From assembly GCA_026399755.1 (NCBI GenBank), contig JAPLQI010000132.1, forward strand, positions 1 through 33,134: DNA of 33,134 nucleotides. The letters are read 5' to 3'. Of the stretch, positions 2,679 to 17,304 are shown in pieces. The stretch comes from Pseudomonadota bacterium (GTDB lineage Bacteria > Pseudomonadota > Gammaproteobacteria > Burkholderiales > Chitinibacteraceae). The notes beneath the pieces are model-generated. The model made no database searches, was not told the origin of the DNA, and was given only the letters and a program-made list of their open reading frames with translations. Position 1 is the first letter of the stretch, and each line of letters begins with the position of its first letter. The position numbers and the translations under genes are program-made.

Positions 2679-2947
2679 ACTTACATATCTATAGGTAAGT
2701 GCAGCCTGCTCCCAAATAACAACGCAGACCATCCAAACCATTTCTTTCCAGCTATGTAGATTTGTAAGAAACAAAGAAATAGCGGCAGATCAAAAAAAAT
2801 CGAAAGGGAAGATATTTGCTTAGAGTAAAGCAAAGCAGAAACAACATGAGAGCAAAGAAAACACAGGGACCATGTAAGCATAAACCACAATTTCTTATGC
2901 TTTACATTCAGCCTAGCGGCTGTCGTCTTTGATTTAATTGATATTTG

Positions 2948-2994
2948 ATTGGTGCGCCCAGTAGGAATCGAACCTACGACCTTCAGCTTCGGAA
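2948..2994 (-). repeat. attL: 47-bp copy of the 3' half of tRNA-Arg(CCG)
   Basis: These 47 bases are identical to 17305-17351, which covers the 3' half of the complete tRNA-Arg gene from the anticodon loop through the T arm, acceptor and CCA. Beyond the 47 bp the similarity stops at once: no D arm follows. This is the displaced original 3' end left when an element recombined into the tRNA gene. Confidence 0.93.
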
Positions 2995-3102
2995 TCTGGC
3001 TATCTTGTGTTTCATGCCATTTCATTACACTTCAAAACCCAACAAATACAATGACTTATAAAAATAAACATGTCATGGGTCTATATAAAAGCTCGTGAAA
3101 CT

Positions 3103-3123
3103 GTAACCATAAAAGTAACCATA
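3103..3123 (+). promoter_or_regulatory. Candidate integrase/excisionase arm sites, left end
   Basis: GTAACCATA occurs at 3103-3111 and 3115-3123, a 12-bp period, about 110 bp inside the left attachment repeat and just upstream of the integrase start. The same pair with the same 12-bp period occurs at 17230-17250 inside the right end. Matching direct repeats near both ends of a tyrosine-recombinase element are typical of arm-type binding sites. The location also suits autoregulation of the integrase gene. Confidence 0.55.
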
Positions 3124-3142
3124 GAATTGACGGGGTACGGTT

Positions 3143-4645
3143 ATGGCAAAGAATAAGCTCAGTTATGACTCAGACGTAAAGAACGCACCGGAAAATATAG
3201 CCAAGGGCGAGAAAGAAATATTCTTACGCGATGGCGACGGCTTGGAATTGCGGATCACACAATCAGGTCGTTATTGGCAGTACCGATTTACATGGGAAGG
3301 CCAGCGCGGTGTGTTCCCAATGAACGGCGACAAAAGCGAGCGGGACGAGAAAGAAACCACCGCCAAGAATGAACTTGCCGAAGCAAGGCGCTGGGCCGCG
3401 TGGTGTAGAGCACAAAAGAACGCCAACCTAGACCCGCGCAAAGTTCGAGCAGATGCGGAGGCCGCGCGCAAGAAGGCCATACTTGACGCTGAGGCGGAGC
3501 TAATCCGCATTGCACGAGCAGAAGCGGCACAGCTCTCAATGAACGATCTGTATGAGCAATGGGATAAAACGCACGGGGCAACACTAGATACGCACTGGCG
3601 AGCGGTAAGACGTTCACACTGGCAATGCCACCTTGCGCCCATCATTGGCAGCACGCCCATTGCTGAGGCAAATAAAGTGCCTCTAATGGAGATCCACGAC
3701 CGGCTGACCTCGCAAGGAAAAAAAGCAACGGCCCGCAGCGTTTTAGCCTTGCTTATTCAGCTAGTAGGCTGGGGAGTAGAACGCGGTATTGTTGCGGATG
3801 ACCATAGATTGTTGGCCTTCAAGCTACCCAAGAAGCAAGAGATGGTTACTGAGGGGCAAAAAGGGGAGAATTTTAGGGCGGATGATTACATTGTAAAACA
3901 CGGCGTTGAAATCATCGGGCAAGATGGTGAAGACGATAAAGCAGGCCGCGCCCTGCAATTTAGCGAGCTAAGCGACTTACTGAGCCAGAGCCTAGCTAAA
4001 TCTTCACAGGCTTTGACCGGCAAGTGCATCATTCGCTATATGCTGGCAACAGGGGTTAGAGCATCGCAAGCCGTTCGATTGCGTTGGGACTGGGTATCGC
4101 TAGATCATCGAGTGGTTATCTATCCAACCGGCTCAATGAAAAAGCGCAAGATGCACCATGTTCACTTGAGTGATTATGCTTTTAAGCAAATTAACTTGAT
4201 GCTAGCACTGCGAGTGAACGATTTTGTGTTTCCTGCGCCAATCAAAGAAGCCGCACACGTTCGCAGAGATAATGTAAGCACGGACATTGCCACTCGCCAA
4301 CACTACAGCGGCGATGATCTAGTCAAGCGCATGAAATTACGTCGAGCCGTTGACCAGTACAATTTTTACAATCTAACGGGGGGAAAATGGGCGCTCTACG
4401 ATTTACGCAGAACAGCCGCTACCCGCCTAATGGAATTGACCGGCAGCAATTGGGATATCGTGCAAAAGATTTTGGCCCACTCACAGAAAGAAGCTCGCGG
4501 TGAAACGGATAAATACGACAGGTTTTCAAGATGGGCTGATCGCTGCAATGCACTTAATCAATGGGGTGAAGCGTTAGCCACATGCGAGGCAGGCAATGTG
4601 CCACTCGCTCATACTGAGAATGTAATTAAACTAAAAACAGCCTAA
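3143..4645 (+). CDS. Tyrosine site-specific integrase (DUF4102 arm-binding type)
   Basis: A 500-residue tyrosine recombinase that would integrate and excise the element at tRNA-Arg. Residues about 18-60 resemble the DUF4102/Arm-DNA-bind_3 domain (FLRDGDGLELRI, WQYRFTWEGQR). A Lys/Ala/Glu-rich helix joins it to a core-binding domain (about 135-230). The catalytic domain shows Arg306 (TGVRASQAVRLRW), a Lys cluster at 333-336, the box II segment YDLRRTAATRL with Arg422, LAHS with His446, and the nucleophile candidate Tyr458 (DKYDRFS). Box II normally reads HxxR; here the first residue is Tyr419. The insert between 235 and 265 is longer than usual. It is the first gene inside the left attachment site. 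The start is preceded by ACGGGG, a weak ribosome site. Confidence 0.92.
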   Translation: MAKNKLSYDSDVKNAPENIAKGEKEIFLRDGDGLELRITQSGRYWQYRFTWEGQRGVFPMNGDKSERDEKETTAKNELAEARRWAAWCRAQKNANLDPRKVRADAEAARKKAILDAEAELIRIARAEAAQLSMNDLYEQWDKTHGATLDTHWRAVRRSHWQCHLAPIIGSTPIAEANKVPLMEIHDRLTSQGKKATARSVLALLIQLVGWGVERGIVADDHRLLAFKLPKKQEMVTEGQKGENFRADDYIVKHGVEIIGQDGEDDKAGRALQFSELSDLLSQSLAKSSQALTGKCIIRYMLATGVRASQAVRLRWDWVSLDHRVVIYPTGSMKKRKMHHVHLSDYAFKQINLMLALRVNDFVFPAPIKEAAHVRRDNVSTDIATRQHYSGDDLVKRMKLRRAVDQYNFYNLTGGKWALYDLRRTAATRLMELTGSNWDIVQKILAHSQKEARGETDKYDRFSRWADRCNALNQWGEALATCEAGNVPLAHTENVIKLKTA

Positions 4646-4666
4646 TTTGAACTGAAGAGGTGAACC

Positions 4667-4888
4667 ATGAACCAAACCCAACAACTTAATGAAATTATTG
4701 CCCATTTGCCAGAGCAAGCCATTGCAGAGGTCATCGACTTCGCTGAATTTGTCGCACACAAACTGGCAAAAACACGTGGAAATGAACCACTAGAAAATCT
4801 GATTGGCAGCATGAAAAACAGTGATGTATTTGCTGGCCGTGACCCTTTAGAGATTCAACAAGAAATGCGTAGCGAGTGGGTACGCTAA
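4667..4888 (+). CDS. VapB-like antitoxin (DUF2281-like)
   Basis: Seventy-three residues with the pattern of DUF2281/VapB antitoxins. An N-terminal helix (NEIIAHLPEQAIAEVIDFAEFV) matches the family's LP-x-n-hydrophobic EVxDFxEFL core, and an acidic, probably disordered tail (residues 50-73, RDPLEIQQEMRSEWVR) would wrap the toxin. It follows a clear GAAGAGGTGA ribosome site and overlaps the PIN-domain gene by one base (TAATG), the usual translational coupling of toxin-antitoxin operons. It would neutralise the toxin and probably repress the operon. There is no AbrB or RHH fold visible, so how it binds DNA is unclear. Confidence 0.8.
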   Translation: MNQTQQLNEIIAHLPEQAIAEVIDFAEFVAHKLAKTRGNEPLENLIGSMKNSDVFAGRDPLEIQQEMRSEWVR

Positions 4889-5244
4889 TGTTACTTGATA
4901 CCAATATTGTGATCGGCTTACTGGCCGGTACAGATACAACGGTGGCCGCATTTAAGGTAGAGCAAAAGCCGCTAGCTAGCTGCGCCGTGTCCATTATTAC
5001 CCGCATGGAAGTATTGAGCTGGCAGGGTATGACTGAGGAAGGGGCAGCTTTAGCGAGCCGTCTATTTAGCGGCTTACGTGTACTGCCTATCAGTGACGAA
5101 ATAGAAGCCGCAACAATCGCACTACGCCGCCGCCGCAAGATAAAGCTACCTGATGCGATCATTGCGGCAACCGCGCAAGCGCACGGCCTGCAATTGCTGA
5201 CACTGGATCAAGGATTGTTATCGGTGATTAACGATACGATCTAA
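4888..5244 (+). CDS. VapC-like PIN-domain toxin (RNase)
   Basis: A 118-residue PIN-domain protein, the normal VapC length. The acidic residues of the metal site are visible: Asp4 (LLDTNIVIG), Glu41 (RMEVLSW), Asp89 (KLPDAIIAATA) and Asp107 (LLTLDQGL). Family members cleave tRNA or rRNA when freed from antitoxin. The frame is open from a GTG at 4876, but the ATG at 4888 puts the conserved LLDTN motif at the extreme N-terminus as in VapC proteins, and it overlaps the antitoxin stop by one base. The pair likely stabilises the element against loss. Confidence 0.88.
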   Translation: MLLDTNIVIGLLAGTDTTVAAFKVEQKPLASCAVSIITRMEVLSWQGMTEEGAALASRLFSGLRVLPISDEIEAATIALRRRRKIKLPDAIIAATAQAHGLQLLTLDQGLLSVINDTI

Positions 5245-5339
5245 AAAAGAGCTTGCCACGACTAGAGGGAGTGAAGAAAACAGTGTTCTTTGCCCGCTGG
5301 CGTGGCAATCACAAAGTATTACGCCAATAGGACGCGTGA

Positions 5340-5918
5340 ATGACATTGCTTTCAGTAAGAAAACCAACTGGCAGAGATATCGTAGATCTTCTTCTGCTGT
5401 GTGCCCCAAAAGAAGTCTTAGATGAACTAGAAATTTCAGAAAATGACCGCAAAGGTGGTGCTGCTGATTTTGATTGCTTAGATACTTTTCATTTTAACGA
5501 AATGTTTGCTTTATCTTTGTTTTATGCCTGTAGATCAGCAGTGACTAGAAAAAAATCCGTCCCACTAATTCAGTCTCTTCAGATTAACCCCCACACACTT
5601 TTTTCATTTAGAGAAGTTATTCTTGCAGAGGATTTCACAGAATTAACAGCCATTTATCAGCGAATTAAAAAAGATACATACGCGAAAGGTGGAAATGAAA
5701 CAGCAAGAAAATCCACTATTGCAGGTGCAAAAAATCACGCCAAGCTAACTTGGGTTACTTGGACAAAAAATCCCAAATTATTTAAGAGTAAGGCTGCTTT
5801 AGCAACGTATGTCTTGGATAAATTCCCCGACATAAAGACTAGTGCAAAAGACATGGCTAAGTGGTTTACAGAATGGGAAAGAGCCGCGAATTTACCGCCA
5901 TTGTGGTGGAAGAAATAA
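5340..5918 (+). CDS. Hypothetical protein of the element
   Basis: A 192-residue AT-rich gene whose composition differs from the integrase before it. The N-terminal 100 residues are helical and contain FNEMFALSLFYACRSA. The C-terminal part is basic with the order KLFKSKAALATYVLDKFPDI, then KTSAKDMAKWFTEW, which resembles a helix-turn-helix-like module in which a lysine-rich helix precedes an aromatic one. No ribosome site is obvious before the ATG. An 8-bp inverted repeat, TTGCCACG (5253-5260) and CGTGGCAA (5301-5308), lies just upstream and could be an operator. I do not recognise the family. A DNA-binding accessory or regulatory protein is a guess from context. Confidence 0.6.
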   Translation: MTLLSVRKPTGRDIVDLLLLCAPKEVLDELEISENDRKGGAADFDCLDTFHFNEMFALSLFYACRSAVTRKKSVPLIQSLQINPHTLFSFREVILAEDFTELTAIYQRIKKDTYAKGGNETARKSTIAGAKNHAKLTWVTWTKNPKLFKSKAALATYVLDKFPDIKTSAKDMAKWFTEWERAANLPPLWWKK

Positions 5919-6001
5919 AAAGGGGGTGCTACTAGTAGAGGGGTTTTTTTGTTTTGTTTGTAGCCTCAGCATAGCGTTTTTTCTACATAACGACGCTTTA
6001 C

Positions 6002-6232
6002 ATGCCACAGCATATCAATTCCCAAGTATCACCCCAGTCCTATGGTTCACTACCGGTAAGTGGCTTTGTTCGGCAGCCTGCGGTACTCGCTTGTGTTCCT
6101 TTTTCTGCTACGACTTTGTGGCGAAAATGTAAGGCTGGTCATTTTCCGGCCCCAGTAAAGCTATCCGAGCGTGTAACTGCTTGGCGTGCGGATGACGTGC
6201 GGCAATGGCTTGCTGCACAGGGGGCGATTTAA
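6002..6232 (+). CDS. AlpA-family HTH regulator (candidate excisionase)
   Basis: A 76-residue protein. Residues 22-76 match the AlpA/MerR-like winged helix-turn-helix: a FVRQPAVLACVPFSATTLWR recognition part, then the GHFPAPVKLSERVTAWRADDVRQW segment with the FP.PVKL and WR..DV.QWL signature. In P4-like islands and CP4-57, AlpA proteins activate excision of the island. The first 20 residues are not conserved-looking and no ribosome site precedes the ATG at 6002, so the true start may be further in. Its stop overlaps the next ATG by one base (TAATG), so the two are coupled. Confidence 0.82.
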   Translation: MPQHINSQVSPQSYGSLPVSGFVRQPAVLACVPFSATTLWRKCKAGHFPAPVKLSERVTAWRADDVRQWLAAQGAI

Positions 6233-6957
6233 TGGCTAAGCCACTTACCCCCATCATTCAAAATCACCAGATCCCATTTGAGCTAGGCATCATTAAAGCC
6301 ATTTCACACGGTGATGATATGTTTGTCTCTGTACGGCATATCTGCGAGGCATTTGGCATTGACTCAAAATCACAACAAAGAAAGCTAGCCAATGATTCGA
6401 GGTGGAGTTGTGGTCATATGACCGCAACTGCCGCTGATGGTAAAGCATATCAAATGCTCACCCTGCCACTTGAACAAGTCCCCGCTTTCCTTAATTCCAT
6501 CAATGCCAACAAAGTGAAGCCAGAGATACGTCCGAAATTTCGTGGCTTTCAAGATGAATGCACCAAGGCGATGTATGACTATTGGATGACGGGCAAGGCA
6601 GAGCGGCAAACACTCTCTATACAGATGTCCTTTCAGATTGCCGACACGCTGGCAGTGTTTAAAGACGAATACGCCACCATTTACGGAAAGCCTGCCGATG
6701 CAATACCACATTCAGGCATGTACGCCATGATTCAAACCGCCTTAAATCAAGCTATTTGTGGTGCTGACAGGCTACCAGAAGGACTGACCCGTCATTCGCT
6801 TCCAACGGCCGCGCTAGAACGCTTAAAGGATGCGGGAAAAATACTGAGGAAGGCATTTATTCGTGGGGTGAAGCTGAAGGATGCCGCTAAACAACTGCGA
6901 GTGACCTTTCCTGAGCCGGTGCTAAGGATCGAAATCAAGGTGGAGGTCACAGCATGA
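6232..6957 (+). CDS. Phage antirepressor-domain protein (P22_AR_N)
   Basis: 241 residues from the ATG at 6232. A GGGGGCG ribosome site and the one-base overlap with the AlpA stop support it over the upstream in-frame TTG at 6205. Residues 12-125 match the P22 antirepressor N-terminal domain: FVSVRHICEAFGIDSKSQQR, LPLEQVPAFLNSINANKV and CTKAMYDYW. In phage P22 this domain is part of Ant, which binds and inactivates repressors. The C-terminal part contains a helix-turn-helix-like stretch (KDAAKQLRVTF). It lies directly before the structured leader of the replication operon, so it may take part in the same lysogeny decision. In phage P1 the ant gene is also controlled by a C4 RNA, although there it is downstream. 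Confidence 0.85.
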   Translation: MAKPLTPIIQNHQIPFELGIIKAISHGDDMFVSVRHICEAFGIDSKSQQRKLANDSRWSCGHMTATAADGKAYQMLTLPLEQVPAFLNSINANKVKPEIRPKFRGFQDECTKAMYDYWMTGKAERQTLSIQMSFQIADTLAVFKDEYATIYGKPADAIPHSGMYAMIQTALNQAICGADRLPEGLTRHSLPTAALERLKDAGKILRKAFIRGVKLKDAAKQLRVTFPEPVLRIEIKVEVTA

Positions 6958-6972
6958 GCCAAGTTCTAGCGC

Positions 6973-7001
6973 TTGACCCGTGTCTTAGGTGGCATGATAA
7001 T
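6973..7001 (+). promoter_or_regulatory. Strong sigma70-type promoter of the leader RNA
   Basis: TTGACC (6973-6978), a 17-bp spacer and GATAAT (6996-7001) predict a start near 7008. A small hairpin (GCGCT-CAAT-AGCGC, 7011-7024) would sit at the 5' end of the RNA. The promoter lies inside the first codons of a long frame (6954-7391) that overlaps the antirepressor stop. This suggests the leader acts mainly as RNA and that this frame is not the main product. Confidence 0.65.
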
Positions 7002-7025
7002 AATGGTTCTGCGCTCAATAGCGCG

Positions 7026-7053
7026 GGCAGCTTTAGCAGGCTGAACACATTGG
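7026..7053 (+). promoter_or_regulatory. First target box set (b1/a1) of the antisense leader RNA
   Basis: GGCAGCTTTAGCAGGC (7026-7041) and CACATTGG (7046-7053) together are complementary over about 28 bases to 7154-7180, with two mismatches, a wobble, a short unpaired stretch and one bulge. The segment begins about 18 nt after the predicted transcription start and ends at the competing hairpin before the attenuator. It plays the part of seqA in P4 or a1/b1 in P1 c4. Confidence 0.65.
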
Positions 7054-7082
7054 CGGATAACCGCCGTCAAAGCGGTTTTTTT
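7052..7082 (+). terminator. Attenuator: intrinsic terminator with a competing anti-terminator hairpin
   Basis: ACCGC (7060-7064) pairs with GCGGT (7072-7076) and is followed by seven T residues (7076-7082), a short intrinsic terminator. The same CCGCC (7061-7065) can instead pair with GGCGG (7052-7056) across an ATAA loop, which prevents the terminator. GGCGG shares two bases with the CACATTGG box, so antisense RNA bound to that box would weaken the anti-terminator and favour termination. Confidence 0.6.
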
Positions 7083-7114
7083 ACGTCCGTTAACACCATA
7101 GTTACGCCTTCAAT

Positions 7115-7180
7115 GGCGGGGGCATGGTGGGGAAGCCTACGGGCTTGCCGGTTCCAATGTGCCGGTCTGCTAACCCTGCC
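7115..7180 (+). ncRNA. C4/CI-like antisense immunity RNA (candidate)
   Basis: A hairpin-rich segment containing AAGCC-TACG-GGCTT (7133-7146), then CCGG-TTCCAATGTG-CCGG (7148-7165), whose loop displays CCAATGTG, and then CTGCTAACCCTGCC. CCAATGTG is complementary to CACATTGG at 7046-7053 and again at 7229-7236. CTGCTAA is complementary to TTAGCAG at 7033-7039 and at 7200-7206. One antisense unit with two sense targets, one before and one after it, is the defining layout of C4 RNA of P1/P7 and CI RNA of P4. The exact ends are not visible and would come from processing. The identification rests on this base-pairing logic, not on a covariance search. Confidence 0.65.
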
Positions 7181-7182
7181 AT

Positions 7183-7239
7183 GTACCCGTCACCCTCATT
7201 TAGCAGTGAGGGGCGGGTTACTTAACCCCACATTGGAGG
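7183..7239 (+). promoter_or_regulatory. Second target box set (b2/a2) covering the Shine-Dalgarno of the next gene
   Basis: A composite hairpin pairs GTACCCG (7183-7189) with CGGGTTAC (7214-7221) and CCCTCA (7193-7198) with TGAGGG (7207-7212). Its loop shows TTTAGCAG, the b box. The a box CACATTGG (7229-7236) runs into GGAGG (7235-7239), the ribosome site for the ATG at 7248. Pairing with the antisense RNA would block translation there, as C4 RNA does for icd in phage P1. Confidence 0.62.
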
Positions 7240-7247
7240 CAATCACC

Positions 7248-7391
7248 ATGCCTAAGCTCGCTCGCGCCCTACTCTCACACCTCTCTTTTGCAGCCATCTT
7301 GCTAGCCGCCTATAACCATGCGCCTTTGATTGTCGTTTTGCTGGCCGTAATGATGCTGGCCTTGGTGCATCTTGTGGGTGCGCCTAAATGA
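7248..7391 (+). CDS. 47-residue membrane peptide under the antisense leader (Icd-like position)
   Basis: The ATG at 7248 has a strong GGAGG ribosome site at 7235-7239. The product is MPKLARALLSHLSF followed by two hydrophobic stretches (about residues 8-21 and 25-43) joined by a short NHAP turn, so it is probably a small membrane protein. It continues the longer frame that opens at 6954, but that start lies before the promoter at 6973-7001, so mRNA from this promoter would carry only the short form. Its stop overlaps the next ATG (ATGA). In P1-type systems the gene in this position is icd, a cell-division inhibitor. Similarity of position is all that supports that role here. Confidence 0.6.
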   Translation: MPKLARALLSHLSFAAILLAAYNHAPLIVVLLAVMMLALVHLVGAPK

Positions 7392-7609
7392 GCCAGCCTA
7401 GATCAGCACCACAGCGCCCAGTAATTGAGCTGTCCAAATTAATCACCATTGAGCTGGCTAATATGGTGGCGGTCAAAGTCACTGTAATAGCCGCGCTTGA
7501 TATGGCTCTATTTCACCTAGATAACGATGCTCGACTAGGCACAGCCAGCTATAGCAGCAAGGCCGCAAATGCCTACCTCACTGCCGTAATCGACTCAGTA
7601 AACCTTTAA
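7388..7609 (+). CDS. Small hypothetical protein of the replication operon
   Basis: Seventy-three residues, beginning at an ATG that overlaps the preceding stop by four bases. It has a basic, Pro-rich start and then a helical, mildly hydrophobic centre (NMVAVKVTVIAALDMALFHL) and a polar tail with KAANAYLTAVID. No motif is recognised. The tight overlap with its upstream neighbour argues that it is translated. Confidence 0.6.
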   Translation: MSQPRSAPQRPVIELSKLITIELANMVAVKVTVIAALDMALFHLDNDARLGTASYSSKAANAYLTAVIDSVNL

Positions 7610-7621
7610 GAGCACCTTGAA

Positions 7622-7831
7622 ATGAAAAACCCGTTTATCACGGGTGTGGCTACTGCTACGCCCAAAAAGGCTAAAACTCCTCTTTTTAAGGCTCTCACTT
7701 GGTTTATTAAGTGCGTTATCGTCATTGCCATGCAACAAATCGCCGTCGCATTAGCCATTGAGGATGGCCGCTTACAAGTAAAAAAACGGCATGGTGCTCT
7801 GTCGTTTGTTGAGCAGGGAGTGAAAGCATGA
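7622..7831 (+). CDS. Small hypothetical protein upstream of the primase
   Basis: Sixty-nine residues ending in an ATGA overlap with the primase start at 7828. The N-terminal half is basic (TPKKAKTP), followed by a hydrophobic segment (FIKCVIVIAMQQIAVALAI) that could be one membrane helix or a buried helix. The preceding ribosome site is weak. The coupling to the primase is the main support that the gene is real. Confidence 0.55.
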   Translation: MKNPFITGVATATPKKAKTPLFKALTWFIKCVIVIAMQQIAVALAIEDGRLQVKKRHGALSFVEQGVKA

Positions 7832-8898
7832 GCCAATCTTTTAGCCAACAAGTAAAGCAAGCCGCTAATGGTTATTGGCCTCTTATTCTTACCCGCATGG
7901 GGATCAATCCCAAATTACTTGATGGCCGTAATCACCCCTGCCCCGCTTGCGGTGGCAGGGATCGCTTTCAGTTCACAGCAAGCGGCAAAAGTGCGGAGTA
8001 TGGCCGTTTTGCTTGTCGCGGCATGGATAAGCTAGGCGGCGATGGATTCGCGCTAGTGATGCATGTGTTTAATCTCAGCTTTCTCGACGCAGTGAAGGCC
8101 GTGGCAAAAGCGCTTGGGATCAGCAGGAATGGGCCGCAATTAGATATGCCCGTCATGCCAGCACTACCAGCCAGCCCAGTAATCGACAGCACCACCAAGC
8201 TGCAAGCGATATTGAATAACTGCCAGCAAGTACGCAGCAATAATGCCGCTGGTAAATATCTGATCAACCGAGGATTGGCGGCTGATTACTGGCCTACTCA
8301 TAACGTACTGCGCTTTGCTAAGACTTTGGATTACTGGCATAGCAATGATGACGCTAAGCCCATCAAGCTAGGCGTGTGGCCTGCCTTAATCGCTCATATC
8401 CAAAAGCCTGATGGATCACTGGCAGGCATTCATCGCATTTACCTAAGCCAAGACGGTTACAAGGCCGATATCGCCGCTATTAATGGCGAAGTCCCCCCGT
8501 GCAAGAAATTGCAGTCCGCCCATACCGGTTCAATTCGTGGTGCTGCTTGCCGCTTATTCCCTATTGGCGAGGATGGCCGCTTAGCGCTAAGCGAAGGGAT
8601 AGAAACCGCCATCGCCGTGCATCGAATGACGGGCTTAGCTGTATGGGCGTGTATCTCTGCTGGTGGGCTTAAAAACGTGGTGCTGCCCGATAACGTGCGA
8701 GAGGTGCTGATCTATGGCGATAACGACTTGCCAGATGACAAGGGTCGCAATGTAGGTAAAGAAAGTGCTTACCTTTTAGCAGCCAAGCTGCTTGCAATGG
8801 GTAAGGCGGTCAAAGTTTTGTTGCCGCAAGTAGCAGGCATGGATTGGCTAGACGTACTCAATAACGACTTAAATAGAGCAATACCTAATGCTGAATAA
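7828..8898 (+). CDS. P4-type DNA primase (zinc ribbon plus Toprim-like domain)
   Basis: 356 residues matching the primase part of phage P4 alpha-like proteins. The zinc ribbon is at 36-75 (NHPCPACGGRDRFQF, Cys38 and Cys41, and FACRG, Cys63), followed by GGDGFALVMHVF. The Toprim-like fold follows: LSEGIETAIAV with Glu256, then a YGDND acidic motif at 296-300. It would make primers for replication of the excised element. The usual zinc ribbon has four Cys; the fourth position here appears to be Met66 (CRGM instead of CxxC), so metal binding may be weakened or use another ligand. It overlaps the DUF927 gene by 11 bases and is part of one operon beginning at the antisense leader. Confidence 0.88.
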   Translation: MSQSFSQQVKQAANGYWPLILTRMGINPKLLDGRNHPCPACGGRDRFQFTASGKSAEYGRFACRGMDKLGGDGFALVMHVFNLSFLDAVKAVAKALGISRNGPQLDMPVMPALPASPVIDSTTKLQAILNNCQQVRSNNAAGKYLINRGLAADYWPTHNVLRFAKTLDYWHSNDDAKPIKLGVWPALIAHIQKPDGSLAGIHRIYLSQDGYKADIAAINGEVPPCKKLQSAHTGSIRGAACRLFPIGEDGRLALSEGIETAIAVHRMTGLAVWACISAGGLKNVVLPDNVREVLIYGDNDLPDDKGRNVGKESAYLLAAKLLAMGKAVKVLLPQVAGMDWLDVLNNDLNRAIPNAE

Positions 8899-10693
8899 TA
8901 TGAATGACGAAGTTCCGCTGTTTAATGCGGCCAATCCTGATAACGCGGGCTACCAAGCACCTAAAGCAGACCCAGAACTTATCTCTAGTGAAACAACGGA
9001 GTATTACTGCACACTCAATAGTCATTTGGTTTACGTTGGTACAAAAATTGATCATTCCACTGGAGATAGACAGGATTTGCCCCCACTACGTCTATGCAAA
9101 TCACTAGCCATCCTTGGGCAGGGCGTTGATGATTACGGCGATCATTCCCGCGTTTTGTACTGGTCTGACCCGCTCACCAAACAAGAGCAGATGCTTGCCC
9201 TCGCAGCGGCGGATATTGGCGAGCGTGATGGCTGGAAGTTATTGAACAGCAAAGGCTTAGAGGTGGCATCGGGTAGAGCCGCGCGTGAAAAACTGGCCGA
9301 TTACTTGCAAAGCCAAGGCAGCCAGACTCGCTACCACATCGCCAACCAATCAGGCTGGAAATGCGGGGCATTTTTGCTGCCGACCGGCGAGGTGATCGGC
9401 ACACCAGACTGCAAGATTTATTATCCAGCATCGGTGGAACACAAGTCTAAATTTGCCCAAGTCAGAACGATTGAGGGTTGGCGAAATAATGTGGGTTCAT
9501 TGGCAAGGGGGAATAATCTCGCCATGACTTCAGTCGCATGTTCTCTAGCGGGGCCGGTACTAGCCTTGATCGGGGCGCGTGATGGGATCGGTCTGCACTT
9601 TCACGGAGAAACATCGACAGGGAAAAGTTCATGTGCTGATGTAGGTGCAAGCATATGGGGCAGCCCTGAACACATCATGCAGAGCTGGGATGGAACAAGC
9701 ATCGGCCTCACTAATTCGGCGGAATTCTCTAATAGCATAATGCTGTACCTTGATGAGATTGGCGCTGGAAAAGCTCAACATATGGGGGGCATCATTTACA
9801 CCATGCTCAACGGCGTTTCACGCACCCAAGGCCGCAAAGATGGCGGCAACCGAACTAGCCGCAGATGGCTATTGACGCTCATATCCACCGGCGAAGTGCC
9901 TATGAGCCAGTACTTAAGTGAAGGAGGGCAAACCTCACGTGGGGGCCAAGAAATCAGAATGTTAGATGTCCCTGTAGGTAGTGGAAAATATCGCGCATTT
10001 GATTGTATTCACCAAGCAAAAGACGGGGCTGAATTTTCTATTGCACTGACTAATGCAGCACGTAGCCATTACGGTACCGTAGGCCGTGAATTTGTTGCAT
10101 GGCTAATAGCCAATAAGGGCAGTGTTGACGGCCATGTCAAGGCTTGCCAAGACCGAATGCTGGCAGAGCTACCAGACCACGTTGCCGCGCCGGTTAAGAG
10201 GGCCACGCGTAAATGGGGCATTCTAGCTGCAGCCTTAGTCATGGCGAGCGAGGCAGAGCTAACAGGCTGGAGTGCAGAAGAGTCCTATCAGGCCGTACGT
10301 GCCATCTGGCAAAAATGGCTGGATGACTTTGGCCTGTCGAGCCGTGATGATGAGCGATTGATTGAACAGGTTGAAAACTTCCTAGAATCCAATCAATTTA
10401 GCCGCTTCGCCCCCCTCCCCCTAAGTGGTAACGAGTCAGGCATTCATAACCTAGCTGGCTATCGTCGAACCATGGGCGATAGCCGCACTGAGTTTTCCTT
10501 AAACAATGCAGGCTTTAAGGAAGCCATACAGGGTTATGTAATGAAAAAAGCTTGCGAGATATTGCACACGGCAGGGATGTTGCATAGGCCAGAAGGACGT
10601 GACCAGTGGACTAGAAACGCGGGGAAAGGCTTGGGCATGGTGTATAAAATGACGCTGAGGCCGTGCAAAGACGTGCAAATAGCAGCCCGATAA
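8888..10693 (+). CDS. DUF927 superfamily replicative helicase
   Basis: 601 residues. Residues from about 95 onwards match DUF927 proteins: GWKCGAFLLPTGEVIG, then a P-loop GETSTGKSS (Gly240-Ser248), and Walker B MLYLDEIG with Asp289 and Glu290. A TLISTGEVPM sensor-like segment follows. Together with the primase this forms the separated equivalent of the P4 alpha primase-helicase. The ATG at 8888 is used; another ATG at 8900 lies four codons further in and cannot be excluded. It overlaps the primase stop. A repeat cluster that looks like an origin begins 30 bases after its stop. Confidence 0.88.
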   Translation: MLNNMNDEVPLFNAANPDNAGYQAPKADPELISSETTEYYCTLNSHLVYVGTKIDHSTGDRQDLPPLRLCKSLAILGQGVDDYGDHSRVLYWSDPLTKQEQMLALAAADIGERDGWKLLNSKGLEVASGRAAREKLADYLQSQGSQTRYHIANQSGWKCGAFLLPTGEVIGTPDCKIYYPASVEHKSKFAQVRTIEGWRNNVGSLARGNNLAMTSVACSLAGPVLALIGARDGIGLHFHGETSTGKSSCADVGASIWGSPEHIMQSWDGTSIGLTNSAEFSNSIMLYLDEIGAGKAQHMGGIIYTMLNGVSRTQGRKDGGNRTSRRWLLTLISTGEVPMSQYLSEGGQTSRGGQEIRMLDVPVGSGKYRAFDCIHQAKDGAEFSIALTNAARSHYGTVGREFVAWLIANKGSVDGHVKACQDRMLAELPDHVAAPVKRATRKWGILAAALVMASEAELTGWSAEESYQAVRAIWQKWLDDFGLSSRDDERLIEQVENFLESNQFSRFAPLPLSGNESGIHNLAGYRRTMGDSRTEFSLNNAGFKEAIQGYVMKKACEILHTAGMLHRPEGRDQWTRNAGKGLGMVYKMTLRPCKDVQIAAR

Positions 10694-10723
10694 ATAAACG
10701 CACTAGATGCAAGAAAAACGCAA

Positions 10724-10979
10724 CCAACACCACCAACACCACCAATTCACTATTTTTATCTTATATAAGCCTTATAAATACTAGGTTTTTGAGTTGGTGC
10801 TTAAGTTGGTGGTTTTTGCCTAATTGGTGTTTGTGAAAATATTCTTGTTTGGTGGTGCTGGGTTATTAGTTGGTGGTGCGACAACACAAAAGGAGTAGCC
10901 ACCAACTAACTACCGCGCATAAAGTCAACGGGAATGCGGGCTGGGCGGTGAAGTTGGTGGTTTGGTGGCGTTGGTGGTG
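10724..10979. repeat. TTGGTG repeat cluster with AT-rich core, candidate replication origin
   Basis: TTGGTG occurs on the plus strand at 10794, 10806, 10824, 10849, 10870, 10954, 10962 and 10971, and on the minus strand (CACCAA) at 10731, 10740 and 10900: eleven copies in about 250 bp, several extended to TTGGTGGTG. A roughly 45-bp AT-rich stretch (10746-10790) lies inside. Directly after a primase and helicase, this matches the iteron plus DNA-unwinding layout of plasmid-like origins and the P4 ori. No gene is supported in 10694-11157. Confidence 0.6.
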
Positions 10980-11157
10980 TTTTTTTCTACCTAGAAAAAT
11001 AAAATACAACAGTACGGTGCAAAGCAGTCGTGAGGTAAGTACTAACCGCGCGTGGTTAAGCCAATACTCAGTGTTTTTTGATCGTAACAAGACGGGGAAA
11101 GACGGCCAAATAATGATCCAAAAACACAATCACTACGCTTTATTTTTTGATAAATAA

Positions 11158-11188
11158 GCCTCACCCAATCAAGGATGAGGCTTTTTTT
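11158..11188 (+). terminator. Hairpin terminator between convergent replication operon and R-M gene
   Basis: GCCTCA (11158-11163) pairs with TGAGGC (11176-11181), followed by seven T residues. It lies 12 bases past the end of the minus-strand R-M gene, and on that strand it is followed by TTATTTAT, so it may serve both directions. Confidence 0.78.
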
Positions 11189-11199
11189 ATGCTGGGTGA

Positions 11200-14100
11200 T
11201 TAAGCCAGATTTAATGCGGGCAAAGCTTTGACGATTTTCATTGTTTTTAGCGATACCGTTACCACGCGCAAGAATAGCTCTAGCGGGTAGCGAGGGTTAT
11301 TCATGGTATCGCAGGCCCAATCGTTTGCGTCGTTCACAATGCCGCTGTCTTTGTGCGTGCTAACGCATTGGCGCTCTACTACCCAATCCAAAGCCGGTTT
11401 GCCGTTCACCACGTATTCATACGCTTCCAATGGAATACCCGTCAGGGTGATTTTATGGTTGTAATGCAGCGTGCTTAAATCTTTATCTTTGCCTTTTTTA
11501 CCGTACTTCATTTTCTCCACACGGTAATCCGCCGCGCTGAGGCTTAAATCCAGACCTTGGGCGGGGTACATTGGTACGGTTTCATAATCCAGATGCAAGG
11601 CCGCCAATTGCCGCCCTGCCTGACTAAAAGCCCAAAAATCAGCAGCTGTTTTAACACAAGGAATACGCGGTAATTCTTTGCTTAAATTATCGGCATAACG
11701 CTCACGGTAATCGGGTGAATGCAGCAGACCGTAAACATAATAGAAAATATCTTCTTTAATGATTTTTTCATCAGGATAAGCCGCAAGGAAATGCGCCAAA
11801 CCTTCATCGGAGATAGCGTCCTTCTTGGTGTAGCCTTGGCTACTTTCTACAACCACTTGCTCATCAAGGGCTGCCAGCATATCTCCTTGCTGGCTATTCA
11901 CATTCCCCACTTCCACTGTTTTTGTCTCATAAAGGGATAGTGGGAAGCATTGACAGCCACCATCAGGCTGAAGGCACACAACGCTGTCGATCATTAGCAC
12001 AAATTGACCTTCCCCCCGCCAGTTACCTTTAAACATAATGGTTGGATTCTTTACTGTTGCATCGGGAAATAGTCTGGGCATCTGGTAAATCATGTCGTTC
12101 ATAGACTTACTGAAATACACATGCGATTTTGTATATGGTCGATAAAGCCCTGTAGCCAATGAAGAAGCTTGAAAAGCATGTCGAACAAGCCGACCTAAAT
12201 CATTTTTCAACCCTCGATTCCAGCTAATATTTACCATATCTGTATTAGCAAAGTCATCAATATCAGGATATTGATCTTTGCTTAAGCCTGAGCATGCCAA
12301 GGTATAGCGATTAACTTCAGTATTATAAAAATCAATCATCCTCAGCATATTACTTGCTACATTTTTATTAGAAAAATTGTAACACCAAGCATCTCGGTTT
12401 GTTTTTACTCCACTTGAATAACTTTCAAATAATGAAATAGCATCTTTATTTTTTTTATCCCCTAAATTAATAAATTCGTTAAAAGATTCATCACGCTGTT
12501 TCATCCAGTCCCCGTGAGAATCAGGAGTGACTTCTTGCCATGCATTCACTGCACTTATTCCTGCAATACTGTGAAATTCAGCAATTTTTTCTAATTTTGT
12601 TTTCTGACTTAAATAATCACCAATATCGTGCCAATAAATCTTCCCATGCTGCTTAGCCAGAGGATTTTTAACCAGCAAAGTAATTGCTATTGGAGCGCGG
12701 CTGCCACTACCAAAAATCTTACCGCCTTCACGGCGCGATAGCTCGCCAGATGTACGTTGATTACCACGCAGGTGGAAAACATAAATACTGCTAAATTCTT
12801 CAGCTAAACATCGCCGCAAACCATCGGCTGAATTTGTCTCCAAAAATCCAGCATTGGTCACAAAGCCAATTACACCGCTATCACCAAGGCGATCAGAAGC
12901 CCAACGAATCGCACGAATGTATGAGTCATAAAGTGCATTTTTATTTGTCGCCGTTGAGCGGGCAGCATAGCTTTCACGAATTGCACTATCCAGTACGGGA
13001 TAAGCCACATTTTGATTATTGTCATTGGCACTATCCTGACCTGCCGAATACGGCGGATTACCAATAATTACCCGAATATCCAGCGCTTTCTGCTTTTTAC
13101 GCCTTGCGCTGTTATCCACTAATAGCTGGTCTACCAAATCTTCCTTTTCGTACATCTGAAACGTATCGGTCAGGCAAATCCCTTCAAAGGGCACATAGTC
13201 GCCACCAACGATGCTGTGATAAACCGCTTCGATATTAATGGCGGCAATATAATAGGCCAGCAGTACAATTTCATTGGCGTGGATTTGGCCTTGGTATTTG
13301 GCTTGTAATTGCTCTTTAGAAATTAAGCCACTTTGCAGCAGGCGGGTAATAAAGGTGCCGGTGCCGGTAAATGGATCAATAATATGCACACCATCGCTGC
13401 CCAAGCTTTGGCCGAATTCTGTTTTTAAAATGTGATCTACGCTATGGATAATAAAATCCACCACCTCTACTGGCGTGTAGACAATACCTAGGCGTTCGGT
13501 CATGCGTGGAAAGGCGTTTTTAAAGAATTTTTCGTAAAGCTCAACAATGATTTTTTGCTTGCCATTGGCGTTTTCAATGCCTTCGGCACGCTGTTTTACG
13601 CTATGGTAAAAGCGCTCTAGCGTATCGGCTTCTTTATCTAAACGATGTTCTTGCAAGATATCCAGCACAGCTTGCATGGCGCAAGACATCGGGTTGTTAG
13701 AGGCAAAGCTGTAATCACTGAATAGCGCATCAAATACCGGCTTGGTAATTAAATGCTGGGCCAGCATTTCTACTACTTCGGCATCGCTGATGCTGTCATT
13801 CAGATCATCGCGTAATTCATTTGCAAAGGCGTAAAAAGCCTCACGCTCTTTGATATTTTCTGTGTTTTCAATAATGGTTTTAATGCGGGTAATGTGGGTG
13901 CGGGCAATCTTGGCAATATCATTCGCCCAGTCTTCCCAATGATGGCGATTACCGCATTTTTGCACGACTTTGGCGTAAATGGCCCGTTCAATTTCGCCAA
14001 TTTCAAATTGCAATTCTGCCTGAGCATCTTCAGCATATTTGGGTACAGCCTCACCAATCTTATATTCCCTTTTACCCGCGTCTTTATTGCTAGTACCGGT

Positions 14101-16131
14101 CGATTTTTTATCTTTCTTGGTGATTTTATCGGTAATGGAGATGACTTCCATTTTGGAGGTATCACGGCCAATTAACTCCAGCTTATTGACCATCGCATCA
14201 AAGCGATCATCATGCGAGCGCAAGGCTTGCAGCACTTGCCAGACCACCTTGTAAGTCTTGTTATCATCTAAGGCATCGTGCGCCTCTACACCAGCAGGAA
14301 TCACCACCGGCAAGATGACATAGCCGCGTGTCTTGCCCTCTGCAAGCCGCATTACGCGGCCAACCGATTGCACTACATCAACCTGAGAATTGCGCGGGGT
14401 AAGAAAGAGCACGGCATCCAGCGCGGGTACATCCACGCCTTCAGACAAGCAACGGACATTGCTGAGAATACGGCAGGTGTTATCTGGCGTTTCTGCTTTA
14501 AGCCAAGCCAGTTTTTCTTCTTTTTGGCTTGCGTTCATGCCGCCATCCACGTGCTCAGCTTCGCATTGCAAAGTGACCGAGACTTTATCTTCAGCAAATT
14601 CTTGCTCTTTGTAAGCCTCTACCACGCGGGAAAACATGCTGGCGATATTTTTAGAGCTGACCTTATGCGATCTGTTCGTGGTGCTGGCTTCAATCACTTG
14701 GCAAAAAGCCAAGGCACGGCGCATTGGATTGCCGTCATCCATAAGATCTACTTGGGTTTCTTGCTTGGATAAACCTTTCCAGCAACCAATAATTTTAGCG
14801 GCGTCGTCTACTTTTAGCTGGTTATCATCACCAGCCAGCAGCTTTTGCAAGCTGCGGCTGATGTGGGCCTCATCGACAGCTAAAACCACCACCTTGTAAT
14901 CGACCAAAAGCTTTTGGCGCACGGCTTCAGAAAAGTTGATCACATACAACTCTTTGCCATACAGCGCTTCATCATCCATAGAGCAGAGTGCAACGCTGTC
15001 TTTTTCTGCGGATGCTTTGGCGCTATCGCCATAAATACGCGGTGTGGCGGTCATATACAGGCGTTTGGCCGCCTTAATAAAGTCGCTATCGTGGACTTTT
15101 ACAAAATTTGATTCGTCAGCATCGCCAAAAGTAGCGCCGGTGGTGCGGTGTGCTTCATCGCAAATAATTAAATCGAAATCGGCCAGCGCGTGTTCTTTTT
15201 GCGCTTTGCTGATCACTTCAATAGATTGATAGGTTGAGAAGACCACGCTCATATGATGGGCATCGTGGCGCTTAGCCATTTCAAGCGCTAGGCGGGCAGG
15301 CTCGGTTGTAGCGGGGTAACGCAGCTCATGGGTAAAAGTTTGCACCACGTCATCATCTTTTTTACGCTTCTTACCCACGTCCACATCGGAGCAAACGGCA
15401 AAACTATGCAATGGCGTTTCGCTTTCTTGTGTCCACTCTGTGAGCGTTTGCGAGAGCAAAGACAGGCTAGGCACTAAAAATAAAACCCGCTTGCCCGTAC
15501 CCGCTAGCTTTTCAGCAATTTTTAAGCTGGTAAAGGTTTTACCTGTGCCACAAGCCATAATCAGCTTGCCTCGGTCTGCATCTTGCAAGCCTCTTTCTGC
15601 ACCGGCCAAAGCACCTGCTTGGTGTTCACGCAATTGCTTTTTAACTTTGAGCACGGGCGCGACTTTGGGCTGGTACTGCGCCCAATCAATCTGACTATTT
15701 TCTAAATCTTGTAAATCAATTTTACTCACCGGCGGGTGCTGATTTTGCAAGGCATCTTCTGCATTCACCCCCCAATGAATGGTGGTGGTGATAATCACGC
15801 GGTGGCTGAATGTTTTTTTGCCAGAGGCGGTAAAAAAGCTATCAATATCTGACTTTTGTACACGGTAATCAGGCGCGTAAAATTTGCACTGAATGGCATG
15901 AAACTCGCCCGTACCGTGAGTTTCGGCCACCAAATCAATACCGGTATCCCGCTTATCTAAAGCTTGCTCATCAGCCCAAGCTGAATACGTCCACACCTTG
16001 CTGTAAAGATCACGGTAAGTGGCTTCATTTCGCAAGTAGCAACAAATCAACTCCTCAAAATAAGTCCCTTTTTCACGTTGTGTTTCAGAGGCTTGACGAT
16101 AAGTTGAGAGTAGCGTTTGTAAGGGGGTCAT
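11200..16131 (-). CDS. Single-polypeptide restriction-modification enzyme (type ISP-like)
   Basis: A 1643-residue protein with every part of a type ISP enzyme in order. An Mrr/PD-(D/E)XK nuclease lies at about 1-120, with Asp66 (GIDLVAE) and the QCK at 81-83. A superfamily 2 helicase/translocase follows: Walker A CGTGKT (194-199), DEAH at 325-328, YMTATPR, and QSVGRVMR near the end of RecA domain 2. An adenine-N6 methyltransferase has motif I DPFTGTGTF (from Asp919) and NPPY (1025-1028). The last 500 residues should hold the target recognition domain. Known members such as LlaGI and LlaBIII are about 1570-1580 residues. One gene therefore both methylates and cuts, and no separate methylase is needed. 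It is the only minus-strand gene of the element and likely its phage-defence cargo. Confidence 0.92.
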   Translation of the reverse strand: MTPLQTLLSTYRQASETQREKGTYFEELICCYLRNEATYRDLYSKVWTYSAWADEQALDKRDTGIDLVAETHGTGEFHAIQCKFYAPDYRVQKSDIDSFFTASGKKTFSHRVIITTTIHWGVNAEDALQNQHPPVSKIDLQDLENSQIDWAQYQPKVAPVLKVKKQLREHQAGALAGAERGLQDADRGKLIMACGTGKTFTSLKIAEKLAGTGKRVLFLVPSLSLLSQTLTEWTQESETPLHSFAVCSDVDVGKKRKKDDDVVQTFTHELRYPATTEPARLALEMAKRHDAHHMSVVFSTYQSIEVISKAQKEHALADFDLIICDEAHRTTGATFGDADESNFVKVHDSDFIKAAKRLYMTATPRIYGDSAKASAEKDSVALCSMDDEALYGKELYVINFSEAVRQKLLVDYKVVVLAVDEAHISRSLQKLLAGDDNQLKVDDAAKIIGCWKGLSKQETQVDLMDDGNPMRRALAFCQVIEASTTNRSHKVSSKNIASMFSRVVEAYKEQEFAEDKVSVTLQCEAEHVDGGMNASQKEEKLAWLKAETPDNTCRILSNVRCLSEGVDVPALDAVLFLTPRNSQVDVVQSVGRVMRLAEGKTRGYVILPVVIPAGVEAHDALDDNKTYKVVWQVLQALRSHDDRFDAMVNKLELIGRDTSKMEVISITDKITKKDKKSTGTSNKDAGKREYKIGEAVPKYAEDAQAELQFEIGEIERAIYAKVVQKCGNRHHWEDWANDIAKIARTHITRIKTIIENTENIKEREAFYAFANELRDDLNDSISDAEVVEMLAQHLITKPVFDALFSDYSFASNNPMSCAMQAVLDILQEHRLDKEADTLERFYHSVKQRAEGIENANGKQKIIVELYEKFFKNAFPRMTERLGIVYTPVEVVDFIIHSVDHILKTEFGQSLGSDGVHIIDPFTGTGTFITRLLQSGLISKEQLQAKYQGQIHANEIVLLAYYIAAINIEAVYHSIVGGDYVPFEGICLTDTFQMYEKEDLVDQLLVDNSARRKKQKALDIRVIIGNPPYSAGQDSANDNNQNVAYPVLDSAIRESYAARSTATNKNALYDSYIRAIRWASDRLGDSGVIGFVTNAGFLETNSADGLRRCLAEEFSSIYVFHLRGNQRTSGELSRREGGKIFGSGSRAPIAITLLVKNPLAKQHGKIYWHDIGDYLSQKTKLEKIAEFHSIAGISAVNAWQEVTPDSHGDWMKQRDESFNEFINLGDKKNKDAISLFESYSSGVKTNRDAWCYNFSNKNVASNMLRMIDFYNTEVNRYTLACSGLSKDQYPDIDDFANTDMVNISWNRGLKNDLGRLVRHAFQASSLATGLYRPYTKSHVYFSKSMNDMIYQMPRLFPDATVKNPTIMFKGNWRGEGQFVLMIDSVVCLQPDGGCQCFPLSLYETKTVEVGNVNSQQGDMLAALDEQVVVESSQGYTKKDAISDEGLAHFLAAYPDEKIIKEDIFYYVYGLLHSPDYRERYADNLSKELPRIPCVKTAADFWAFSQAGRQLAALHLDYETVPMYPAQGLDLSLSAADYRVEKMKYGKKGKDKDLSTLHYNHKITLTGIPLEAYEYVVNGKPALDWVVERQCVSTHKDSGIVNDANDWACDTMNNPRYPLELFLRVVTVSLKTMKIVKALPALNLA

Positions 16132-16321
16132 TTTCTTGGGCTTGTAGGGGATTGGGTCAGTCGTTTGCGGGGCGAAAGCTGCAAATATGCTGCATTTCTA
16201 AAGTGCCGACATATTAAAGCAAGGACTTGGTTTTGGGGGTGATTCTGCTGGGAATTAATAGGTTTGGAAGCGGTATTTACTCAAAGACCACTGGAGTCGG
16301 TGGCGAAGCTCAGGCAGAGGG
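16132..16321. other. Upstream region of the R-M gene
   Basis: About 190 bp before the R-M start on its strand. The ribosome site is weak (AAGAAA directly before the ATG) and no confident promoter is seen. The AAAGTACCGC array begins just beyond. Confidence 0.35.
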
Positions 16322-17250: not shown

Positions 17251-17304
17251 AACCGCTCATTTAGGATTTATGCATGCAGCTGAAAATGCTAAGTCTTTGT
17301 TTTA

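What the first reader, a model, noticed from the sequence alone, without database searches (positions are those of the whole stretch)
6973..7391. C4/CI-type antisense RNA immunity circuit controlling the replication operon
Seen: a sigma70-like promoter (6973-7001), then sense boxes TTAGCAG and CACATTGG (7033-7053), a segment holding their complements CCAATGTG and CTGCTAA (7154-7173), and the same sense boxes again (7200-7206 and 7229-7236). The full complement of the first set runs about 28 bases with about five interruptions. The last CACATTGG shares bases with the GGAGG ribosome site of the gene at 7248. Known: phage P1/P7 C4 RNA and P4 CI RNA have exactly this logic, one antisense unit pairing with targets on both sides of itself. 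Inference: this element uses such an RNA to stay silent. If the sequence family is new, this is a distinct branch of the immunity RNAs.
Basis: partly seen in the sequence, partly recalled or inferred. Interest (0 to 1): 0.88.

Follow-up and report, generated by a model that had tools for sequence, protein, structure and literature searches.

The report
C4 antisense RNA island switch
A mobile DNA island in a bacterial chromosome carries a known kind of small antisense RNA that probably keeps its replication genes off, and comparison with relatives suggests that it does so partly by tipping a terminator switch in its own leader, as predicted also for the classic phages P1 and P7.

Summary
Boxes, promoter and ribosome-site overlap lie where stated; 0 of 1000 shuffles reach either pairing score. 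The antisense unit is a standard Rfam C4 RNA (RF01695, 71.3 bits, cut-off 45), so the "distinct branch" idea fails. Across 160 distinct C4 loci the boxes covary with their own C4: upstream pairing beats all 40 swapped C4s in 130, downstream in 111.

Beyond the finding, an intrinsic terminator sits between the upstream boxes and C4, its 5' arm about 6 nt after box b1. A competing hairpin uses the last bases of b1. In the window, predicted terminator pairing rises from 0.04 to 0.89 when the boxes are occupied; over 89 leaders the mean rises from 0.57 to 0.89 (control block 0.58), nearly all through the last three bases of b1. P1 and P7 fold the same way; P4 and Gifsy-1 show no change. I infer an antisense-driven attenuator plus ribosome-site block, on a 14.4-kb tRNA-Arg island with a P4-like layout. 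Nothing was tested at the bench. New member of a known kind.

The parts
2944..17362 (.). mobile island, about 14.4 kb, bounded by a 62-nt direct repeat (2944-3005 and 17301-17362) that overlaps the tRNA-Arg(CCG) gene
   Evidence: repeat 92% identical; tRNA 17307-17383 minus strand; integrase 3143-4645 next to the left repeat
6205..6957 (+). antirepressor-like (Bro-network) gene just upstream of the RNA region
   Evidence: P22_AR_N 4e-33; phrog_524 anti-repressor 7.3e-28
6973..7001 (+). sigma-70 promoter TTGACC-17-GATAAT
   Evidence: conserved position in relatives
7011..7024 (+). 5' leader hairpin H1
   Evidence: covariation in 88 leaders
7028..7043 (+). hairpin H2 with box a1 (TTAGCAG 7033-7039) in its loop
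   Evidence: 98.6% of cells paired, three of four pairs with two-sided changes; a1 covaries with a'
7046..7053 (+). box b1 CACATTGG; its last two G belong also to the competing hairpin
7052..7065 (+). competing (antiterminator-like) hairpin X.Y, GGCGG-ATAA-CCGCC
   Evidence: -7.9 kcal/mol; helix of at least 4 bp in 123 of 154 leaders; covariation score reached by 0 of 500 column shuffles
7059..7082 (+). intrinsic terminator Y.Z (stem 7059-7077, T tract from 7076)
7086..7089 (+). segment W, can pair with 7054-7057 once RNA polymerase has passed the T tract
   Evidence: 76.1% of cells paired in 88 leaders
7109..7197 (+). C4 antisense RNA; mature 5' end predicted at GG 7115 by analogy with P1
   Evidence: RF01695 71.3 bits, full length 1-87; P1 c4 is annotated from the matching GG
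7152..7161 (+). b' loop of C4 (TTCCAATGTG)
   Evidence: C4 alignment and fold
7167..7173 (+). a' segment of C4 (CTGCTAA)
7200..7206 (+). downstream box a2 TTAGCAG
7229..7239 (+). downstream box b2 CACATTGG running into the ribosome site GGAGG
7248..7391 (+). 47-aa ORF whose ribosome site is covered by b2; no family match
6954..7391 (+). 145-aa open frame starting at ATGA over the antirepressor stop and running in frame through leader, C4 and the 47-aa ORF (P4 eta-like arrangement)
   Evidence: open right through in 57 of 145 relatives against 34 and 36 for the other frames
7388..7609 (+). 73-aa ORF, no family match
7622..7831 (+). 69-aa ORF, no family match
7828..8898 (+). P4-alpha-like primase (Zn_Ribbon_Prim, Toprim_3)
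   Evidence: phrog_510 1.2e-52; matches P4 alpha at 26.7%
8888..10693 (+). DUF927 replication protein
   Evidence: phrog_1139 9.3e-67

Best explanation
A C4-family antisense RNA controls the island's replication operon from within its own leader, in two places. Transcription starts near 7008. As RNA polymerase passes the leader, segment X (last two bases of b1 plus CGG) folds on Y, which keeps the terminator from forming, and read-through transcripts arise; these are processed to C4. C4 then pairs with a1 and b1 of the next nascent leader. Taking the last bases of b1 breaks X.Y, frees Y to pair with Z, and transcription stops at the T tract. On transcripts that escape, C4 pairs with a2 and b2 and covers the ribosome site of the first ORF. 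The result is a self-limiting supply of C4 and a silent primase operon; an incoming element with the same boxes would be silenced too. Shown by sequence: C4 membership, boxes, their covariation, the terminator, its fixed place, the shared bases; predicted by folding: the switch. Inferred: start site, processing, real termination, silencing, immunity.
For: RF01695 full-length match, 71.3 bits. Cognate boxes beat swapped boxes: upstream all 40 in 130 of 160, at most 2 of 40 reach it in 151 of 160; downstream 111 and 133 of 160. Terminator within 110 nt before C4 in 107 of 164 loci, against 11 of 164 shuffles and 9 of 163 stretches of real downstream DNA; its 5' arm starts a median of 6 nt (IQR 5-7) after b1. 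X.Y helix of 4 bp or more in 123 of 154 leaders, taking in 2 or 3 b1 bases in 105 of these; covariation score 0.199 against 0.131 shuffled, 0 of 500. Window folds: terminator 0.04 free, 0.89 with boxes occupied, at 7083. 89 leaders: 0.57 free, 0.86 b1 occupied, 0.55 a1 alone, 0.89 both, 0.58 control block; 44 gain more than 0.2 (control 11), none loses more than 0.1 (control 17). Occupying only the last 3 nt of b1 gains 0.28, the rest of b1 0.02. P1 and P7 change to the terminator fold when b1 is occupied.
Against: No equilibrium switch in P4 (0.98 to 0.98) or Gifsy-1 (1.0 to 1.0); 45 of 89 leaders gain 0.2 or less; the two other own-genome loci change only from 0.68 to 0.98 and 0.84 to 0.96. 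Swap test for X.Y is weak: mean rank 17.2 of 40 where 20 is chance, 7 of 154 beat all; of 103 leaders without GGCGG, 46 pair better with their own X than with consensus X and 57 do not; of 70 loci whose b1 does not end in GG, 31 keep at least two b1 bases in X.Y, against a permuted mean of 22.5, maximum 32. The 88-89 leaders were chosen for having a terminator; 57 of 164 loci lacked one at my threshold. Once RNA reaches 7100 the terminator stem forms (0.90) even unbound, so timing matters. A nested-only fold of whole C4 with the leader keeps C4 closed. Folding is equilibrium, without RNA polymerase. Recalled literature on P1 and P4 invokes Rho.
Confidence: 0.64

Rival explanations
1. Classic P1 reading only: C4 blocks the ribosome site at b2 and untranslated mRNA is then cut off by Rho (recalled); the leader terminator is constitutive and a1/b1 merely titrate C4 or are relics.
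For: b2 lies on the ribosome site in the window and downstream boxes covary. The P1 record calls a1 and b1 'putative' targets and a2/b2 sites of translational repression. P4 and Gifsy-1 terminators are predicted to form regardless.
Against: Upstream boxes covary at least as strongly as downstream ones (130 against 111 of 160; search spans differ), which relics would not. The last bases of b1 are those that decide the predicted fold.
Confidence: 0.21
2. IsrK-like reading: the short terminated leader RNA is itself the regulator, acting in trans as an activator or as a sponge for C4 through a1/b1.
For: Leader 7008-7082 resembles isrK (36.8 bits, below cut-off) and Gifsy-1 has isrK followed by C4; short IsrK was reported to activate translation of the read-through mRNA (PMC4825925, abstract and passages).
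Against: Does not explain the sharing of b1 bases with the hairpin that opposes the terminator. It could coexist with the best explanation.
Confidence: 0.1
3. Degenerate or retargeted C4: an inert relic, or one that acts mainly on host transcripts, as proposed for Acinetobacter C4-like RNAs.
For: C4-like RNAs are an abundant class in A. baumannii and may target host RNAs (PMC5320573, passages); own genome has three C4 loci.
Against: Promoter, cognate boxes on both sides and a leader terminator are present at all three own-genome loci.
Confidence: 0.03
4. No RNA function: the region is simply coding (open frame 6954-7391).
For: The frame is open for 145 codons.
Against: C4 covariance match and box covariation. 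The frame is open right through in only 57 of 145 relatives.
Confidence: 0.02

Closest known systems
C4 antisense RNA of phages P1/P7 (Rfam RF01695), upstream of icd-ant1, then kilA-N and repL in the P1-like record
   Same: C4 fold at full length, a1/b1 - C4 - a2/b2 order, b2 at the ribosome site, promoter just upstream, repL downstream in the P1-like record; same predicted terminator switch in P1 and P7; blastn match 70% over window 7032-7227
   Different: In P1 the antirepressor lies downstream of C4, here upstream; here primase and DUF927 follow; no C1-type operator was looked for
Satellite phage P4 CI RNA with seqA/seqC
   Same: P4 CI scores 74.9 bits with the C4 model and the seqA region 60.8 with isrK; layout integrase - Bro gene with immunity RNA - primase; open frame through the RNA region in frame with the first ORF, as eta/kil (PMC10111431, passages)
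   Different: P4 terminator predicted to form with or without pairing; no AlpA among the proteins scanned here
isrK / STnc1160 of Gifsy-1 (Rfam RF01394)
   Same: leader RNA ending in an intrinsic terminator, followed by a C4 RNA; authors suggested that STnc1160 might modulate termination at the IsrK terminator (PMC4825925, passages)
   Different: window leader below the isrK cut-off; Gifsy-1 shows no predicted equilibrium switch
Antisense-RNA attenuation of plasmid copy number (pT181, pIP501; recalled)
   Same: antisense RNA promotes intrinsic termination in a replication-gene leader by preventing a competing fold
   Different: no sequence relation tested; here the antisense RNA is cut from the same strand further downstream, not transcribed from the opposite strand

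Membership tests
C4 antisense RNA (RF01695) | score above the curated cut-off over the full model | tested here: met
   71.3 bits, cut-off 45, positions 1-87
C4 antisense RNA (RF01695) | a' and b' complementary to boxes upstream and downstream, changing together with them in relatives | tested here: met
C4 antisense RNA (RF01695) | b2 overlaps the ribosome site of the first gene | tested here: met
   CACATTGGAGG 7229-7239 before ATG 7248
C4 antisense RNA (RF01695) | about 77-nt RNA made by RNase P processing | not testable with these tools
   GG at the expected place (7115); no expression data
C4 antisense RNA (RF01695) | confers immunity / represses the operon | not testable with these tools
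   bench only
isrK (RF01394) | score above the curated cut-off | tested here: not met
   36.8 bits, cut-off 50; still the second-best of 33 hits at E up to 10 in the own genome, the top three all lying just before the three C4 loci
c4-a1b1 (RF03163) | score above the curated cut-off | tested here: not met
   13.8 bits, cut-off 46.7
P4/PICI-type satellite island | integrase and attachment repeats at a tRNA | tested here: met
P4/PICI-type satellite island | P4-alpha-like primase after an immunity-RNA zone | tested here: met
P4/PICI-type satellite island | AlpA regulator | tested here: inconclusive
   none among the 10 proteins scanned with Pfam; other small ORFs not scanned
P4/PICI-type satellite island | mobilised by a helper phage | not testable with these tools
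   no helper sought

The most novel reading that the evidence does not exclude
C4-family RNAs, the founding P1/P7 ones included, are not only translation blockers: their upstream target is an intrinsic-terminator switch in which 2-3 bases are shared between the antisense target b1 and the hairpin that opposes the terminator. The same bases of b' thus read a ribosome site (b2) and an attenuator (b1), giving Rho-independent, self-limiting immunity across proteobacterial islands and prophages.
Probability: 0.48. Interest if true: 0.66.

Novelty: new member of a known kind. Interest (0 to 1): 0.5.

Why it matters
The element itself is one more C4 immunity RNA. What may matter is the leader. P1 and P4 have two targets each, and the P1 record lists the upstream one as 'putative'. 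The shared-base terminator switch gives that target a specific, cheap-to-test job, links three separate Rfam entries (C4, c4-a1b1, isrK) as parts of one circuit, and predicts which bases of the antisense loop are free to diverge (specificity) and which are not (those that meet both the ribosome site and the attenuator). Published precedent covers parts of this: C4 and isrK profiles detecting CI and seqA (PMC10111431) and a suggestion that STnc1160 modulates the IsrK terminator (PMC4825925).

Tried and rejected
Distinct-branch idea: rejected, since the C4 score equals that of P1-like and P4 RNAs. Membership of isrK and c4-a1b1: rejected by cut-off. A universal switch: not upheld, P4 and Gifsy-1 show none at equilibrium. 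Swapping X between loci to prove X.Y: weak, because many share GGCGG; swapping Y between GG and non-GG loci: 75 of 84 GG loci keep the helix against a mean of 59.4, maximum 70, with foreign Y, while the non-GG loci give only 31 of 70 against 20.4, maximum 27; the column-wise test was clearer. Downstream gene census: of the first ORFs of 150 aa or more taken at 134 of 165 loci, 12 matched Bro-N, 10 Toprim_3, 5 pRha, 3 AntA, 3 DUF927 and 1 P22_AR_N in Pfam; the first long ORF is often not in the operon, so this says little. Within-genome specificity: 297 of 299 same-genome pairs of C4 loci differ in a' or b', but boxes are so diverse that this is uninformative. Literature: five older P1/P4 papers are not held, so whether their authors already mapped a leader terminator could not be read. 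Searches made for an attenuator in print; in their listings and the passages I read I saw only the suggestion in PMC4825925 and the general statement on P4 in PMC10111431.

Rows dropped: by my count searches list about 177 C4 places; 165 were analysed and 12, mostly low-scoring, were not fetched; 1 of 165 lacked flank; duplicates removed to 160 (boxes) or 154 (leaders, b1 end 25-85 nt before C4); 88 or 89 leaders with a scored terminator at the right spacing were used for alignment and folding.

Full report
What was claimed and what is there. Against 1000 Markov shuffles of each flank, none reached the paired-box score. The antisense segment lies in a full-length match to the Rfam C4 antisense RNA, 71.3 bits against a cut-off of 45. 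The RNA is therefore a C4 RNA, and not a new branch: the same model gives 71.9 bits for a P1-like phage, 69.0 for the RNA after isrK in Gifsy-1 and 74.9 for P4 CI.

Setting. The window lies in a genome of 4.95 Mb that holds three C4 loci. The island runs from 2944 to 17362 between a 62-nt repeat (92% identical) that overlaps the tRNA-Arg(CCG) gene. It carries an integrase, a PIN-domain protein, a P22_AR_N antirepressor-like protein, the C4 region, three small ORFs without family matches, a P4-alpha-like primase, a DUF927 protein and, on the other strand, a type ISP/IIG restriction-modification enzyme. This follows the order integration, Bro zone with immunity RNA, replication described for Gram-negative phage-inducible islands, and resembles P4 (PMC10111431, passages read), with a restriction system where those carry late genes. 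No capsid or AlpA gene was seen among the proteins scanned (10, 8); other small ORFs were not scanned.

Relatives. C4 matches at E up to 0.001 were found in 24 of 369 genomes of the class (24 over the cut-off) and 55 of 399 of the order (53 over the cut-off). I analysed 165 of about 177 places. For 160 with distinct a'/b' segments, the C4 of each locus was tried against its own flanks and 40 C4s of other loci were swapped in. Upstream, the own C4 beat all 40 in 130 and was reached by at most two in 151; downstream 111 and 133. Taken singly against 25 swaps, b' beats all in 60 upstream and 82 downstream, a' in 39 and 39, of 160. A promoter at a fixed place is conserved too (145 of 154 above their own shuffle mean).

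The leader. Between b1 and C4, 107 of 164 loci have an intrinsic terminator, against 11 of 164 shuffles and 9 of 163 control stretches of real DNA; its 5' arm starts a median of 6 nt after b1, IQR 5-7. The bases between form a second hairpin with that arm: in the window GGCGG (7052-7056) with CCGCC (7061-7065), the first two G being the end of b1. I call the four segments X, Y (terminator 5' arm), Z (3' arm) and W (after the T tract, can pair with X). X.Y is present at 4 bp or more in 123 of 154 leaders and takes in two or three b1 bases in 105 of these. In an alignment of 88 leaders X.Y has 77.7% of cells paired, five of six pairs with two-sided changes, covariation score 0.199 against 0.131 shuffled (0 of 500) and 0.019-0.109 when slid. 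The two leader hairpins, Y.Z and X.W together score 0.330 against 0.153 (0 of 500). As the tool warns, relatedness can inflate such counts, and the 88 were chosen for having a terminator, which favours Y.Z.

The switch. Folding the window leader as it would emerge, X.Y is at 1.0 when RNA reaches 7066, and at 7083 it is 0.59 with the terminator at 0.04; with a1 and b1 kept from pairing, as when bound by C4, X.Y falls to 0.02 and the terminator rises to 0.89. Further on, when W has emerged (7100), the terminator stem forms at 0.90 even unbound, but the T tract is then past. In 89 leaders the mean terminator probability is 0.57 free, 0.86 with b1 occupied, 0.55 with a1 alone, 0.89 with both and 0.58 with an equal block placed elsewhere; 44 gain more than 0.2 and 26 more than 0.5 (control block 11 and 4), none loses more than 0.1 (control 17). 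Same-size blocks at other places upstream of b1 give -0.013 on average, b1 0.29, and b1 is better than every other place in 58 of 89; occupying only its last three bases gives 0.28, the rest of b1 0.02. In P1 and P7 the minimum-energy leader fold changes to a stem next to the T tract when b1 is occupied; D6 forms such a stem too. The P1-like phage 813R1 goes from 0.01 to 0.79, although with a longer stretch and a slightly different block its minimum-energy fold is another structure. The P1 record marks a1 and b1 as putative targets and lists no terminator in that stretch.

What speaks against it. P4 and Gifsy-1 terminators are predicted to form in any case. Half of the 89 leaders gain little, and the other two own-genome loci start high (0.68 and 0.84). 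Swapping X between loci separates own from foreign only weakly (mean rank 17.2 of 40; 46 better, 57 not, of 103), and the test on loci whose b1 does not end in GG is modest (31 of 70 against 22.5 permuted, maximum 32). Conservation is highest in the last bases of b1 and just after it, as expected if they serve several partners, but a ribosome-site match would also fix them in b2 and so in b' and b1. The strong duplex energies are for excised segments; a nested-only fold of whole C4 with the leader does not pair the boxes, and such folds cannot represent loop-loop contacts. All folds are equilibrium predictions.

How it most likely works. C4, cut from read-through transcripts, pairs with a1 and b1 of later nascent leaders, frees the terminator, and covers the ribosome site on transcripts that escape. 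Two brakes in one RNA keep the primase operon off and C4 supply steady. What is shown is sequence and prediction; processing, termination and silencing are inferred from P1, P4 and Gifsy-1.

An override is possible. A 145-codon frame starts at ATGA over the antirepressor stop and runs in frame through the RNA region into the 47-aa ORF. In P4, translation of eta through the same kind of region prevents termination (PMC10111431). In relatives the frame is open throughout in 57 of 145 loci, against 34 and 36 for the other two frames: suggestive only.

Known and new. The circuit is known from P1/P7 and P4. The link of C4 and isrK profiles to CI and seqA is in print (PMC10111431), and so is the suggestion that STnc1160 may modulate termination at the IsrK terminator (PMC4825925, whose authors also report a co-expression result that did not favour it). 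A shared-base antiterminator in C4 leaders I did not find in searches, but the key older papers are not held, so priority is open.

Noticed in passing
window 6954-7391: Open frame starting at ATGA over the stop of the antirepressor gene and running in frame through promoter, leader, C4 and the 47-aa ORF, like P4 eta/kil; could let an upstream promoter override the RNA brake.
   Followed up: partly
L045 (another genome, different family) and L026: L045 has exactly the window's a' and b' boxes, and L026 the same b'; elements in distant hosts may share an immunity specificity.
   Followed up: no
own genome contigs C84 and C29 (L001, L003; L179, L180): Two further C4 loci in the same genome, each with its own cognate boxes and terminator; the C84 one also has a 69% identical antirepressor and a 37% identical primase.
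   Followed up: partly
window 11200-16131, minus strand: 1643-aa type ISP/IIG restriction-modification enzyme as cargo (PADLOC REase_MTase_IIG 2457 bits).
   Followed up: partly
window 3097-3123 and 17224-17250: 27-nt near-repeat (89% identical) just inside both ends of the island; possibly integrase arm sites.
   Followed up: no
window 16315-16420: Closely spaced repeats of the kind AAAGTACCGC; possible iterons or a regulatory array.
   Followed up: no
G261 contig 9 (L037, L071, L075, L080); G274, G464, G440: Genomes with clusters or many copies of C4 loci: four within about 1.4 kb on one contig of G261; 10 each in G274, G464 and G440.
   Followed up: no
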